Part shown: piece after piece, positions 50,263 to 60,089 of the stretch
How positions within the stretch are numbered: the stretch's first letter is position 1
How the letters are laid out: each line of letters starts with the position of its first letter
Source of the DNA: Hephaestia mangrovi
GTDB taxonomy: Bacteria > Pseudomonadota > Alphaproteobacteria > Sphingomonadales > Sphingomonadaceae
DNA: 64,000 nucleotides
Reading direction: 5' to 3'
Assembly: GCF_019880555.1 (NCBI RefSeq)
Contig: NZ_JAINVU010000003.1
Location: 488,001 to 552,000 of the forward strand
Program-made: the position numbers and the translations under genes
The notes under the pieces: model-generated
What the model was told of the DNA's origin: nothing
Seen by the model: only the letters and a program-made list of their open reading frames with translations
Databases searched by the model: none

Positions 50263-50673
50263 CTAGTCGGCGTCGCGATCCTCGCCGTCGAGGTCGCGTG
50301 CAATTTCCGGCGAGCGCAGCAGCGCGTCGATATGGCCGCCCTCGTCGAAGCTCTCGTCGGCGAGGAACTTGAGGCGCGCGGCATATTTCATCTTCACGCG
50401 ATGCGCGACCTCGCGCTGCAGATAGGCGGTGTTGGTGCGCAGCGCCTTGAGCACCGCTTCCTCGTCCTTGCCGAGCAGCGGCTTCACGAACACCGTCGCA
50501 TGCCGGAGATCGGGCGACATCCGCACTTCGGTGACGCTGACCATATGCCTCGCCAGCGTCTCGTCATGCACGTCGCCGCGCTGCAGGATGTCCGCCAGGA
50601 TATGCCGCACCTGCTCGCCGACCCGCAGCGTGCGGACTGATTGGGTCTCGGATGATTCTGCAGGGCGGCTCAC
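50263..50673 (-). CDS. rbfA: 30S ribosome-binding factor A
   Basis: 136 residues, GTG at 50673. Motifs [38 protein letters not shown] and [19 protein letters not shown] define RbfA, a KH-fold factor that binds immature 16S rRNA and helps 30S maturation, especially in the cold. The GTG overlaps the TGA of the antitoxin gene (GTGA), so its translation may depend on the antitoxin being translated. truB, a common next gene, is absent; a decayed transporter follows instead. Confidence 0.95.
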
Positions 50674-51050
50674 GGTCGATCCTCGGGCAAAATATCTTCG
50701 AGTGGTACGTCCAGCGCCTCACTTAGAGCGCGCCATACTTGCATTTTAGCTCCCCTGGAGCCTCTCTCCAGATTCGAAACGCTCATATTCGTCACGCCGA
50801 TTCTGGACGCCAGTTCGCCTTGCGTCAGACCTCGATACTGCCGCCAGACCTTAACCGGGCTCTCACCTGCCAAAAGCCTGTCCATGACAGACACCGGAAT
50901 ATATTCCTCCCCTGCCAAACGACGACGCTCCGCTTCGACCGCGGCGTCACGATCCCCGCGGTCCTCGACGGCATCAAGCAACTGGCGATATTCGTCTTCC
51001 GGAAGAACTGCCATGCGATTGCCGGCGACTTCGATGATCTGAACGGTCAT
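50670..51050 (-). CDS. XRE-type antitoxin (HTH) of a RelE pair
   Basis: 126 residues from ATG 51050. The N-terminal part ([20 protein letters not shown]) is a Phd-like dimerisation piece; then comes a connector ([20 protein letters not shown]) and a C-terminal Cro/C1 helix-turn-helix ([30 protein letters not shown]). This two-part layout is the partner type of RelE/ParE toxins. It should bind and inhibit the toxin and repress the module. It starts 4 bp after the toxin stop, and its own stop overlaps rbfA. Confidence 0.88.
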
Positions 51051-51054
51051 GGTT

Positions 51055-51297
51055 TCACCTGTAAGCCGATCCTCGCGGGGCGATGTCGTCGATCCAAAGC
51101 GTGTCGGCATCGATCCGAAAGATGATCCTCCAATCCTGCACACGCAGCCGATATTCTGGACGCCCTTTCAGCTTTTTGACATTGGCGCTCAAGGCCAGTG
51201 GCTCGTCAGCGAGCTGCCCGATCTTTTCGCGGACCAGATCACGCTTGTCGCAACGCAGCAATGACCGCGCCGCCGTTCGGGAGAAGCGGATGTCCAC
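51055..51297 (-). CDS. RelE/ParE family toxin
   Basis: 80 residues from GTG 51297. RelE superfamily features: FSRTAARSLLRCDKRDLVREKI at the start, KLKGRPEYRLRVQDWRIIFRID and the C-terminal IAPRGSAYR. RelE toxins cleave mRNA in the ribosomal A site; ParE types poison gyrase. Which applies here cannot be seen. The toxin-first order with a downstream HTH antitoxin is common for this subgroup. The promoter-like site upstream would start transcription near the GTG itself, so the message may be leaderless. Confidence 0.85.
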   Translation of the reverse strand: MDIRFSRTAARSLLRCDKRDLVREKIGQLADEPLALSANVKKLKGRPEYRLRVQDWRIIFRIDADTLWIDDIAPRGSAYR

Positions 51298-51303
51298 CGC
51301 GAT

Positions 51304-51351
51304 GGTATAATCGATGCGTTTACCAGATACAAGTGACCGGTAAACGCATCG
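51304..51351 (-). promoter_or_regulatory. Promoter and 13-bp inverted repeat upstream of relE
   Basis: Perfect arms cgatgcgtttacc (51312-51324) and ggtaaacgcatcg (51339-51351) flank a 14-bp loop, directly after the infB stop. Reading toward relE, TTGTAT (51332-51327) and TATACC (51309-51304) are 17 bp apart. The -35 lies in the loop and the -10 just beyond one arm, a good site for autorepression by the HTH antitoxin. As RNA it is also a strong hairpin, but no U-tract follows. Confidence 0.6.
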
Positions 51352-51357
51352 TTTGCT

Positions 51358-54003
51358 TTACAGCGTCCGTTCGCGCATCTCGACTTCGAACGTCTCGAGG
51401 AAATCGCCCGGTCGGATGTCGGTGAAGTTCTGGGTGAACGTGACACCGCATTCCAGGCCGGCGCGGACTTCGGCGACATCGTCCTTGAAGCGACGCAGGC
51501 TCGCGATCTCGCCATTGTAGATGATGACGTCCTCGCGCGTGATGCGCGCCTTGAGCGCCTTGCGGATGACACCGTCGGTGACCAGCAGGCCTGCCGCCTT
51601 GCCGTGCTTGCCCGCCGAGAACACCTCGCGGATTTCGGCGCGGCCGACCACCGTTTCGAACGCCTCGGGGCCGAGCTCGCCTGCCATCCCCGACCGGATC
51701 TCGTCGATCAGATCGTAGATGATGTCGTAATATTTGAGCGCGACGCCCTGCCGCTCGGCGATCTCGCGCGCCTTGGCATTGGCGCGGACGTTGAAGCCGA
51801 TGATCGGCGCACCGCTGGCGCCCGCCAACGTCACGTCGCTCTCGGTGATACCGCCGACGCCCGAATGCAGCACGCGGGCCTTGATGTCGTCGGTCGAGAT
51901 CTTGTTGATCGATGCGACGATCGCCTCGACCGAACCTTGCGTATCGGCCTTGACCACCAGCGGATATTCGATCGCCTGCTTGTCCTTCAAGGCACTGAAC
52001 ATGCTCTCGAGGCTCGCCGGCGCCTGGGTCGTGCGCTTCTGCAGCAGTACGCCCTGGCGATATTCGGCAACCTCGCGGGCACGCGCCTCGCTCTCGACGA
52101 CCTGCAGCGGATCGCCCGCCGACGGCACGCCCGAAATGCCCAGCACCTCGACCGGCACGGTCGGCCCGGCCTGCTTCACCTGCCGCCCCTTGTCGTCGAT
52201 CATCGCGCGGACCTTGCCGCTCTCGGCGCCGACGACGAACACATCCCCGACCTTGAGCGTACCGCGATTGACCAGCACGGTCGCGACCGGGCCGCGGCCC
52301 TTGTCGAGCTTGGCCTCGATCACCGTGCCTTCGGCGTCGCGATCAGGATTGGCCTTCAGTTCGAGCAGCTCGGCCTGGAGCTGGATCGCGTCGATCAGCT
52401 TGTCGAGCCCGGTCTTCTTCAAGGCCGAGACTTCGACGTCCTGGACGTCGCCCGACATTTCCTCGACGATCACTTCATGCTCGAGCAACCGCTCGCGGAT
52501 GCGCTGCGGATTGGCCTCGGGCTTGTCGACCTTGTTGATCGCCACGATCATCGGCACGCCGGCCGCCTTGGTGTGGTTGATCGCCTCGATCGTCTGCGGC
52601 ATCAGCCCGTCGTCGGCCGCCACCACCAGGATGACGATGTCGGTGACGTTGGCGCCGCGCGCGCGCATCTCGGTGAAGGCTTCGTGGCCCGGCGTGTCGA
52701 GGAAGGTGATCTTCGACTTGTCCTTCAGCGTCACCTGGTAGGCGCCGATATGCTGGGTGATGCCGCCAGCCTCGCCCTTGACGACGTCGGTGCCGCGCAG
52801 CGCATCGAGCAGCGACGTCTTGCCGTGATCGACATGGCCCATGATCGTCACGACCGGCGGACGCGGCTTGAGCTGGTCCTCGGTATCGTCGACCGTGTCG
52901 AGCGTCAGATCAATGTCCGAATCGGACACGCGCTTAATGTTGTGGCCGAATTCGGTGACCAGCAGCTCGGCAGTGTCCTGGTCGATCGTCTGGTTGACGG
53001 TGACCGGCATGCCCATCTTGAACAGCGCCTTCACCAGGTCGGCGCCCTTCTCGGCCATGCGGTTGGCGAGTTCCTGCACCGTGATCGTCTCAGGCACGAC
53101 CACGTCACGGACCTGCTTGGCCTGCGGCTCGCGCGGGCCGGTGTGATGCGAGCGACGCTCCTTTTCGCGCGCGCGCTTGAGCGCGGCGAGGCTGCGGGCG
53201 CGCGCGCCGTCATTGTCGCCGAGCGCGCGGTTGACGGTGAGCTTGCCCGAGCGGCGGCGATCGTCGCCACCGGCACCCTTGCGCTCGGGGCGATCGTTGC
53301 GCGGCGCGCGCGACGGCGCTTCGCCGCCACCACTGCGCTTCGGCGCCGCGGGCGACGACGGTGCGGCGGGATCGGCGGCGGCGGGCGCAGCGGGCTGCGG
53401 CCGGCGGGCCGGCTGCGGGCGCTGAACCGGCGTGAAGCGGCGCGGCGCCGGCATCGAATCGTCGAGCGACACGGTGCGCGGCTGCGGCGCGGGAGCCTCC
53501 TGCGCCGGTTCGCTGGCCTTGGCGGTCTCGACTTCCGGCTCGGGTGCGGGCTCGGGCGCCTTGGCAGCGTCCTCGGCCTGCTGTTCGGCGGCGCGCTTGT
53601 TCTCTTCGGCGCGACGCTTCTCTTCCTCGGCGGCCTCGGCCTTCTCGCGCTCCTCGCGGCGGCGCGCTTCCTCGGCCATCGCGAGGCGCTGTTCCTCGGC
53701 CTCGCGCAACAGGCGCGCCTGGCGCTCCTGCGGCGTCTCGTTCGAAACCGGCGGCTTGGGCGCGGGCTTCGGCGCGGCGGCGGGCACCGGGGCGGGAGCA
53801 GGCGCCGCCGTCGGGGCGGGCGTCGGCGCCGCCTCGGCCTCGCCGGGCTTGCCCAGCACGCGACGACGCTTGACCTCCACGACCACGGTGTTCGAGCGGC
53901 CATGGCTGAAGCTCTGCTTCACCTTGCCGGTCTCGACCGTGCGCTTCAGGCCCAGCGGTGCGCGGGCGCCCAGTTTCGGCTTTTCGTTATCGGTATCGCT
54001 CAC
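51358..54003 (-). CDS. infB: Translation initiation factor IF-2
   Basis: 881 residues. N-terminal IF2-associated region, then a long Ala/Pro/Glu-rich linker (about residues 60-260), GTPase domain with [31 protein letters not shown] and NKVDKPEAN, and C-terminal fMet-tRNA-binding domains ending RTL. Brings initiator tRNA to the 30S subunit. ATG overlaps the stop of the YlxR gene (ATGA). An antisense open frame of 893 codons over this gene is a shadow caused by high GC. Confidence 0.98.
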
Positions 54004-59098: not shown

Positions 59099-59108
59099 CC
59101 GCGATGCG

Positions 59109-60089
59109 CTACCGGCCCGCATCCTTGGGCCGGTAGCGCATCGCGACGTCGCAGCGGGCATAGCGCGCGCCGAAATCGCGCATGATCGCGGCGTCATGAA
59201 CGAAGCCGATCTTCTCGTAGAGATGGATCGCCGGCGCGCACGCCGAATTGGTGAGCAGATAAAGCGTCTCGGCGCCCATTTCGGCGGCGCGGTCGAGCGC
59301 GGCGCGGAGCAGGAACTCGCCAACCTTGCGGCCGCGCGCGCTTTCCAGCACGCCCATCTTGGTCAGCTCAAACTGGCGCTCGCCGGTCTTCTGCAAGGCG
59401 CAGGTGCCGACGATCCCCAGATCGGGCGTCTCGGCGAACAGGATCGCACCACCGCGATCGACGATCCGGGCGCGCGGGTTTTCCAGCACGTCGCGATCGG
59501 TCGGCTCCAGCTTGAACATCGCTTCGATCCAGGCGGCATTGATGTCGTGGAACGCCGGGGCGAGCGCGTCGGAGAAATCGCGGATCGACAGGCCGGGCGG
59601 CGCGGCGGCAGCGGCGCGCTGGTCGAGCGGGGCTTCGGCTAGCGCGCGCTCGATCGCCGCGAGTTGATCGAGCAACGGCCCGTCGAGCGGCGCACAGATC
59701 GCCGTCACCGCTGCCTCGATGCGCGGCCACACCTCGCGTTTCGATTGCGCCAGCGCGGCCTCGCCGGCCAGGGTCAGCGCGATCGTCCGACAGCGCTGGT
59801 CGGCGCGGCCGCGCGACGAGGCGACCAAGCCGAGATCGATCAGGCGCGTCACCGCCCGGGTGATCGCCGGCTGGCTCAGCCCCAACGTGTCGGCGGCCGC
59901 GCCCACCGTCATTGGGCCATAGAGATCGAGCGCGGCGAGGACCGGATATTGGCTCGGCTGGATCGGCAGGTCCGCCGCCGCCACGACGCGGGACACATCG
60001 GCCTGCATCCGCTCGCCGAGCCGCTTCAAACGGCTGCCCAGAAAAAGGTGCCCGCCATCGGCCAGAATATCCTGCATCACCCGCTCCAT
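59109..60089 (-). CDS. MarR-GNAT fusion protein
   Basis: 326 residues. MarR winged helix at about 20-130 (QPSQYPVLAALDLYGPMTVG; GLSQPAITRAVTRLIDLGLV; GRADQRCRTIALTLAG), joined to a GNAT acetyltransferase domain from about 165 to 320 (FELTKMGVLESARGRKVGEF; IHLYEKIGFVHDAAI). It may bind DNA and respond to, or modify, a small molecule. Start ATG 60089. A perfect 12-bp palindrome lies immediately upstream and is a candidate autoregulatory site. Transcribed in the same direction as the guanylyltransferase gene, 52 bp downstream of it. Confidence 0.9.
   Translation of the reverse strand: MERVMQDILADGGHLFLGSRLKRLGERMQADVSRVVAAADLPIQPSQYPVLAALDLYGPMTVGAAADTLGLSQPAITRAVTRLIDLGLVASSRGRADQRCRTIALTLAGEAALAQSKREVWPRIEAAVTAICAPLDGPLLDQLAAIERALAEAPLDQRAAAAAPPGLSIRDFSDALAPAFHDINAAWIEAMFKLEPTDRDVLENPRARIVDRGGAILFAETPDLGIVGTCALQKTGERQFELTKMGVLESARGRKVGEFLLRAALDRAAEMGAETLYLLTNSACAPAIHLYEKIGFVHDAAIMRDFGARYARCDVAMRYRPKDAGR

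What the first reader, a model, noticed from the sequence alone, without database searches (positions are those of the whole stretch)
51297..51351. Perfect 13-bp inverted repeat coupled to a possibly leaderless toxin gene
The -35 and -10 like boxes with a 17-bp spacer overlap a perfect inverted repeat directly after infB. The predicted transcription start falls at or next to the GTG of relE, with no ribosome site. A leaderless GTG toxin message would be translated by an unusual route. The palindrome may also be an RNA hairpin at the end of infB.
Basis: partly seen in the sequence, partly recalled or inferred. Interest (0 to 1): 0.5.

Follow-up and report, generated by a model that had tools for sequence, protein, structure and literature searches.

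The report
Leaderless RelE toxin behind infB hairpin
A small bacterial toxin gene placed inside a ribosome-assembly operon appears to start its own message exactly at the toxin's first codon, while its antidote keeps a normal ribosome-binding site; the striking palindrome beside it is most likely an RNA hairpin found at that spot with or without the toxin.

Summary
In detail: a perfect 13-bp inverted repeat (51312-51324/51339-51351) lies between infB and a GTG-started RelE toxin, with weak -35/-10-like boxes, no ribosome site, and a -10 box ending 6 nt before GTG. The window's promoter alone is not significant. Comparison shows that the leaderless reading is probably right: the best promoter ends 4-8 nt before the toxin start in 21 of 32 related loci (about 3 expected), 14 of 19 homologs elsewhere and 9 of 13 plasmid homologs, but at only 3 of 30 antitoxin starts. 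Toxins lack Shine-Dalgarno sites (2 of 32 have one); antitoxins have strong ones (28 of 30). The palindrome is mostly not a toxin feature. Toxin-free infB-rbfA junctions often carry a significant inverted repeat too (36 of 39 in the same genus, 33 of 59 in Sphingobium); homologs away from infB rarely do (3 of 24). In Sphingobium the hairpin shows paired changes and G-U rather than A-C mismatches, as an RNA stem would. Most likely, read-through from infB yields antitoxin and RbfA, and toxin comes only from its own leaderless message. Bolder and untested: the toxin removes the ribosomal anti-SD, like its closest structural match, favouring its own translation.

The parts
51358..54003 (-). infB (translation initiation factor IF-2)
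   Evidence: TIGR00487, 790 bits against a cut-off of 424
51309..51354 (-). Inverted repeat: perfect 13-bp arms 51312-51324 and 51339-51351, 16-bp arms with one mismatch; hairpin starting 3 nt after the infB stop
   Evidence: inverted repeats at the same place in toxin-free relatives
51327..51332 (-). Putative -35 box TTGTAT, in the hairpin loop
   Evidence: sequence; 3 of 6 to consensus
51304..51309 (-). Putative -10 box TATACC, 17 bp from the -35 box, ending 6 nt before the toxin start
   Evidence: sequence; the spacing recurs in relatives
51297..51297 (-). Predicted transcription start = first base of the toxin GTG (leaderless)
   Evidence: inference from -10 spacing; not measured
51055..51297 (-). 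RelE-type toxin, 80 aa, GTG start, no Shine-Dalgarno
   Evidence: PF05016, 32.6 bits against 23; model pLDDT 89.9, best PDB match M. tuberculosis RelE1 9g12_B; anti-SD pairing 0.0 kcal/mol
51055..51060 (-). Antitoxin Shine-Dalgarno AGGTGA, overlapping the toxin stop codon
   Evidence: -6.9 kcal/mol with the anti-SD
50670..51050 (-). Antitoxin, 126 aa, C-terminal HTH_3 domain; overlaps the rbfA start by 4 nt
   Evidence: PF01381 E 3e-11 (scanned from an upstream GTG); ATG-started protein; recognition helix highly variable between relatives
50263..50673 (-). rbfA (30S ribosome-binding factor A)
   Evidence: NF001802 equivalog, 186 bits against 142

Best explanation
This is a toxin-first type II toxin-antitoxin module (RelE-fold toxin, HTH antitoxin) lodged between infB and rbfA. 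Supported by comparison: (1) a promoter placed so that transcription begins at the toxin's start codon, giving a leaderless toxin message; (2) no Shine-Dalgarno site for the toxin but a strong one for the antitoxin, overlapping the toxin stop; (3) a stable hairpin between the infB stop and the toxin start, at a place where inverted repeats are common also when no toxin is present. Inferred: messages reading through from infB carry the hairpin and have no ribosome site at the toxin, so they yield antitoxin and RbfA but little toxin. Toxin is made only from the module's own leaderless message, which the HTH antitoxin (alone or with toxin) probably represses. The palindrome would then mainly be an intercistronic RNA hairpin that the promoter overlaps, possibly with an operator nested inside it.
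For: Best promoter ends 4-8 nt before the toxin start in 21 of 32 loci (mode 6 nt) against 3.4 expected by shuffling. Repeat with controls: 21 of 32 (3.2 expected), antitoxin starts 3 of 30 (3.1 expected), homologs not next to infB 14 of 19 (2.2 expected); plasmid homologs (12 proteobacterial, 1 cyanobacterial) 9 of 13. Anti-SD pairing of -5 kcal/mol or better: toxin 2 of 32, antitoxin 28 of 30; plasmid homologs 0 of 13 and 8 of 8. Significant inverted repeat: toxin loci next to infB 21 of 28, homologs not next to infB 3 of 24, toxin-free infB-rbfA junctions with short gaps 36 of 39 (own genus) and 33 of 59 (Sphingobium). Sphingobium hairpin: 10 of 23 pairs changed on both sides; mismatched cells G-U 17 against A-C 3, distinct 11 against 3. 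The sense strand folds more stably in 20 of 25.
Against: No transcription start has been mapped. In the window itself the promoter score is not significant, and 11 of 32 loci have their best-scoring promoter elsewhere. Loci are related, so counts overstate independence; L096 and L097 are near copies. The G-U excess comes almost wholly from Sphingobium. Toxin-free junctions often carry GC-rich repeats unlike this one, so 'same kind of hairpin' is an inference. L030 has no hairpin or promoter and its toxin starts about 12 nt after infB, so read-through translation of toxin may be tolerated there. Read-through, toxicity and repression are untested.
Confidence: 0.6

Rival explanations
1. The palindrome is the operator bound by the HTH antitoxin (with toxin as co-repressor), covering the -35 box and spacer: ordinary autoregulation.
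For: It overlaps the promoter. The recognition helix is highly variable between relatives, as expected if operators diverge. Some pairs with similar helices share half-sites: L049/L050 share GTGTTTAG...CTAAACAC-like sites although L050 is not next to infB; L004/L091 share CCGAACTTT. Fisher test for shared sites at helix similarity 0.4 and z 3: p 0.013.
Against: Partial rank correlation of helix and promoter similarity is weak: 0.096, p 0.05 and 0.055, p 0.19 in the reduced set; the other three Fisher cut-offs give p 0.06-0.25. Homologs away from infB mostly lack such a palindrome (3 of 24), and toxin-free junctions often have one. Sphingobium loci keep the inner stem despite different helices. 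Arms up to 30 bp are longer than a dimer site needs.
Confidence: 0.35
2. The palindrome is an intrinsic terminator that ends infB transcription before the toxin.
For: A stable hairpin directly after the infB stop; L035 has a T-rich tail.
Against: No T run follows the stem in the window, and the terminator scan lists none on this strand; most relatives lack one too (tails). Essential rbfA lies downstream.
Confidence: 0.1
3. The toxin is translated from the infB message by re-initiation, with no leaderless message.
For: The toxin start is only 60 nt after the infB stop; in L030 it is about 12 nt after and has no promoter.
Against: Does not explain the recurring -10 spacing, also seen where infB is not upstream, nor the hairpin between the two genes.
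Confidence: 0.1
4. Self-amplifying switch: the toxin cuts off the 16S anti-Shine-Dalgarno, so that the SD-dependent antitoxin is no longer made while the leaderless toxin still is.
For: Best structural match is M. tuberculosis RelE1 (9g12_B, E 3.5e-5, TM 0.78) and third is RelE2; RelE1 cuts 16S rRNA one nt before the anti-SD (PMC12620021, section 24 read). Residues corresponding to its essential R60, R65, R85 and Y89 appear to be R52, R57, R75 and Y79 here (inferred through the aRelE alignment), invariant or nearly so in 20 toxins. The leaderless toxin and SD antitoxin would give the asymmetry needed.
Against: mRNA-cutting RelE toxins match nearly as well, and those residues are shared with them. 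Sequence identity to RelE1 is only 27%. A similar claim for E. coli MazF is disputed (passages of PMC12274833).
Confidence: 0.1

Closest known systems
RelE toxins (RelBE family; aRelE 1wmi, M. tuberculosis RelE1/RelE2, E. coli RelE)
   Same: RelE fold, ParE_toxin/RelE Pfam family, conserved catalytic-type Arg and Tyr
   Different: Toxin gene comes first and the antitoxin is a C-terminal HTH_3 protein, not a RelB type; target unknown
Leaderless toxin-antitoxin transcripts of M. tuberculosis (32 of 37 modules, PMC3898074, passages read)
   Same: Toxin-antitoxin operon whose message starts at the first gene's start codon
   Different: Here the first gene is the toxin and the antitoxin has a strong SD; inferred from sequence, not mapped
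Leaderless paaR2 of the paaR2-paaA2-parE2 module, E. coli O157:H7 (PMC8630535, passages read)
   Same: Start site at the first codon, palindromes over the promoter
   Different: There the leaderless gene is the regulator, not the toxin; a three-gene module
Toxin-first modules with HTH antitoxin (HigBA, MqsRA; HigBA recalled, MqsRA from the abstract start)
   Same: Gene order, DNA-binding antitoxin
   Different: MqsRA has promoters driving the antitoxin by itself; here read-through from infB may do so

Membership tests
RelE toxin family | RelE/ParE fold and Pfam match | tested here: met
   PF05016 above cut-off; Foldseek hits are RelE, YoeB, ParE, HigB
RelE toxin family | Catalytic Arg/Arg/Arg/Tyr set | tested here: met
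   R52, R57, Y79 invariant and R75 nearly invariant in 20 toxins; equivalence inferred via 1wmi
RelE toxin family | Ribonuclease activity | not testable with these tools
   needs an assay
RelE1-type anti-SD cutters | Cleaves 16S rRNA before the anti-SD | not testable with these tools
   structural resemblance only
Type II toxin-antitoxin module | Adjacent toxin and DNA-binding antitoxin genes | tested here: met
   pair kept together in most loci
Type II toxin-antitoxin module | Autorepression through an operator in the promoter | tested here: inconclusive
Leaderless mRNA | -10 box about 6 nt before the start codon and no SD | tested here: met
   across relatives; in the window alone not significant
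Leaderless mRNA | Mapped 5' end at the start codon | not testable with these tools
   no transcriptome
Intrinsic terminator | Hairpin followed by a T run | tested here: not met
   tail ATACCATCG; scan

The most novel reading that the evidence does not exclude
A translational self-amplifying switch: a RelE1-like toxin removes the ribosomal anti-Shine-Dalgarno; its own message is leaderless and stays translatable, while the antitoxin depends on a strong Shine-Dalgarno and is shut off. The module sits beside infB and rbfA, genes of the initiation and 30S-assembly machinery it would act on.
Probability: 0.1. Interest if true: 0.85.

Novelty: new variant of a known kind. Interest (0 to 1): 0.5.

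Why it matters
Toxin-first modules face the problem that any upstream transcription makes toxin before antitoxin. A leaderless toxin with an SD-led antitoxin would be a simple solution: read-through yields antitoxin, and only the module's own promoter yields toxin. The pattern recurs widely in alphaproteobacterial relatives, and makes the link between toxin action on the anti-SD and leaderless translation directly testable. The control also shows that a striking palindrome next to a toxin gene need not be its operator.

Tried and rejected
Repeat elsewhere in the genome: only this copy. Co-evolution of antitoxin recognition helix and promoter palindrome: weak and cut-off dependent. Intrinsic terminator: no T run. 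Vertical descent of the module with infB: toxin and InfB identities correlate only weakly (Spearman 0.18, p 0.009, n 30), so neither strict descent nor free exchange is shown. Literature: no paper found on an infB-rbfA toxin module (3 papers listed, none on it by title and abstract start) nor the phrase 'leaderless toxin' and three variants (0 papers); further searches. Subscription papers and preprints are not in that library.

Rows dropped or kept: L009 (frameshifted toxin) was dropped before the promoter, SD and repeat counts. L042, whose toxin also matches in two frames, was kept, as was L030 without hairpin or promoter. One search used 25 of the 28 infB-adjacent loci (gaps of 41-109 nt only). 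One search missed 62 of 139 junctions because rbfA was required; redid it without that, leaving 3 of 139 out. L043 had no usable start. Of 14 plasmid hits 13 were fetched; H14, a partial match, was not. In one search two loci gave no antitoxin value (L006, L047). In some searches nine loci were left out, mainly to thin close relatives. Start codons of L107, L108 and L030 were set by hand; start codons of homologs, and of unannotated plasmid loci, were taken as the nearest in-frame start.

Full report
OBSERVATION. On the minus strand the order is infB, inverted repeat, RelE-type toxin (GTG), HTH antitoxin, rbfA. The 13-bp repeat is perfect, single in the genome and beyond chance: 4 such sites in the window, and any in only 1 of 20 shuffled windows. 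The -35 and -10-like boxes are at the stated spacing, with the -10 box ending 6 nt before the GTG, but they are weak. The window's promoter score is not significant alone (p 0.11), and a stricter scan does not report it.

RELATIVES. A scan of named genome contigs with an alignment of four toxins gave 20 loci; 18 of the 20 lie between infB and rbfA, in Sphingobium, Sphingopyxis, Sphingomonas, Sphingosinicella, Erythrobacter, Porphyrobacter and others by record title. One (L039, the same locus as L003) lies between what I read as trpE and trpG (identified by eye, from the frames). The module is patchy: 9 of 295 genomes of the own genus, 12 of 94 in the Sphingobium genus, 3 of 80 in the Sphingopyxis genus, 1 of 40, 3 of 149 in another genus. 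After removing copies with identical 120 nt around the start, 33 loci at 53% identity or more remained; 32 were analysed.

LEADERLESS TOXIN. Scoring the best sigma-70-like promoter within 75 nt, the -10 box ends 4-8 nt before the toxin start in 21 of 32 loci, with 13 at exactly 6; shuffles predict 3.4. Repeating this with controls gave 21 of 32 (3.2 expected), antitoxin starts 3 of 30 (3.1 expected), rbfA starts 3 of 11 (1.4 expected), and homologs not next to infB 14 of 19 (2.2 expected). Thirteen plasmid homologs from Rhodobacterales, Hyphomicrobiales, Rhodospirillales, Cupriavidus and Acaryochloris gave 9 of 13, without a shuffle control. Shine-Dalgarno pairing at -5 kcal/mol or better occurs for 2 of 32 toxins and 28 of 30 antitoxins, against 26.5% of random 15-mers from the same loci; for plasmid homologs 0 of 13 and 8 of 8. 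So the asymmetry, leaderless toxin and SD-led antitoxin, belongs to this toxin class and is not confined to infB neighbours. It is inferred from sequence; no start site was measured.

PALINDROME. Among the 32 loci 21 have a significant inverted repeat, all 21 within the 28 that lie next to infB. Arms are 8-30 bp and mostly unrelated between clades. The key controls: homologs away from infB have one in 3 of 24 (this set includes the 4 non-adjacent loci of the 32), while toxin-free infB-rbfA junctions with gaps up to 220 nt have one in 36 of 39 (own genus) and 33 of 59 (Sphingobium). Junctions with other inserts: 14 of 25 and 1 of 7. So the repeat goes with the end of infB rather than with the toxin. 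Many toxin-free repeats are GC-rich or look dispersed, unlike this one, which limits the inference. In eight Sphingobium loci the stem covaries: 96% of cells paired, 10 of 23 pairs changed on both sides, and slid controls far lower. Mismatched cells are G-U 17 to A-C 3 (distinct 11 to 3), which a DNA dyad would not prefer. The sense strand folds better in 20 of 25 loci, p 0.001 without correction for relatedness. These point to an RNA stem in the read-through message.

OPERATOR TEST. The antitoxin recognition helix varies strongly. If the palindrome were its operator, helix and palindrome similarity should go together. The association is weak: partial rank correlation 0.096 (p 0.05, 31 loci), 0.055 (p 0.19, reduced set); on/off tests give p 0.013 to 0.25 by cut-off. 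A few pairs share half-sites, notably L049 and L050. An operator nested in some hairpins remains possible.

TOXIN. The model (pLDDT 89.9) matches M. tuberculosis RelE1 best (9g12_B, E 3.5e-5), with Methanococcus jannaschii RelE, M. tuberculosis RelE2, E. coli RelE and aRelE close behind. RelE1 cuts the anti-SD off 16S rRNA (PMC12620021: sections 22, 24 and 26 read). The residues that appear equivalent to its essential R60, R65, R85 and Y89 are kept here, but mRNA-cutting relatives share them, so the target is open. If the target were the anti-SD, the leaderless-toxin/SD-antitoxin layout would amplify toxin; this is the bold reading.

LITERATURE. Leaderless toxin-antitoxin messages are known: 32 of 37 modules in M. 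tuberculosis (PMC3898074, passages), and paaR2 in E. coli O157:H7 (PMC8630535, passages). Leaderless messages are common in alphaproteobacteria (PMC7566282 and PMC4117421, passages). I found no paper on this module at infB-rbfA or on a leaderless-toxin/SD-antitoxin design.

VERDICT. Observation confirmed; leaderless interpretation supported; palindrome-toxin coupling mostly not. A new variant of a known kind.

Noticed in passing
L003/L039 (Sphingosinicella soli): The same toxin-antitoxin pair sits between genes I read as trpE and trpG, with only an 8-bp-arm palindrome; a second housekeeping operon carrying the module.
   Followed up: partly
L058, L061, L075, L078 and others (infB-rbfA gap): 32 of 130 toxin-free junctions of two genera hold other inserts between infB and rbfA, such as a 126-128-aa protein resembling glyoxalase-like proteins by eye: the gap looks like an insertion spot.
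   Followed up: partly
L108 and L109 (G1076): Two close copies of the toxin about 1.2 kb apart in one genome.
   Followed up: no
L009, L042, L105: Toxin frames broken (matches in two frames or an in-frame TGA): possible decay of the module, or sequencing errors.
   Followed up: no
   Followed up: partly
window 59100-59145: Nineteen-base perfect inverted repeat with an 8-nt loop between two converging reading frames (a peptidase-like frame on + and a MarR/acetyltransferase-like frame on -, named by eye); its left part lies just after the + stop and its right part at the end of the - frame. Looks like a shared terminator region.
   Followed up: no
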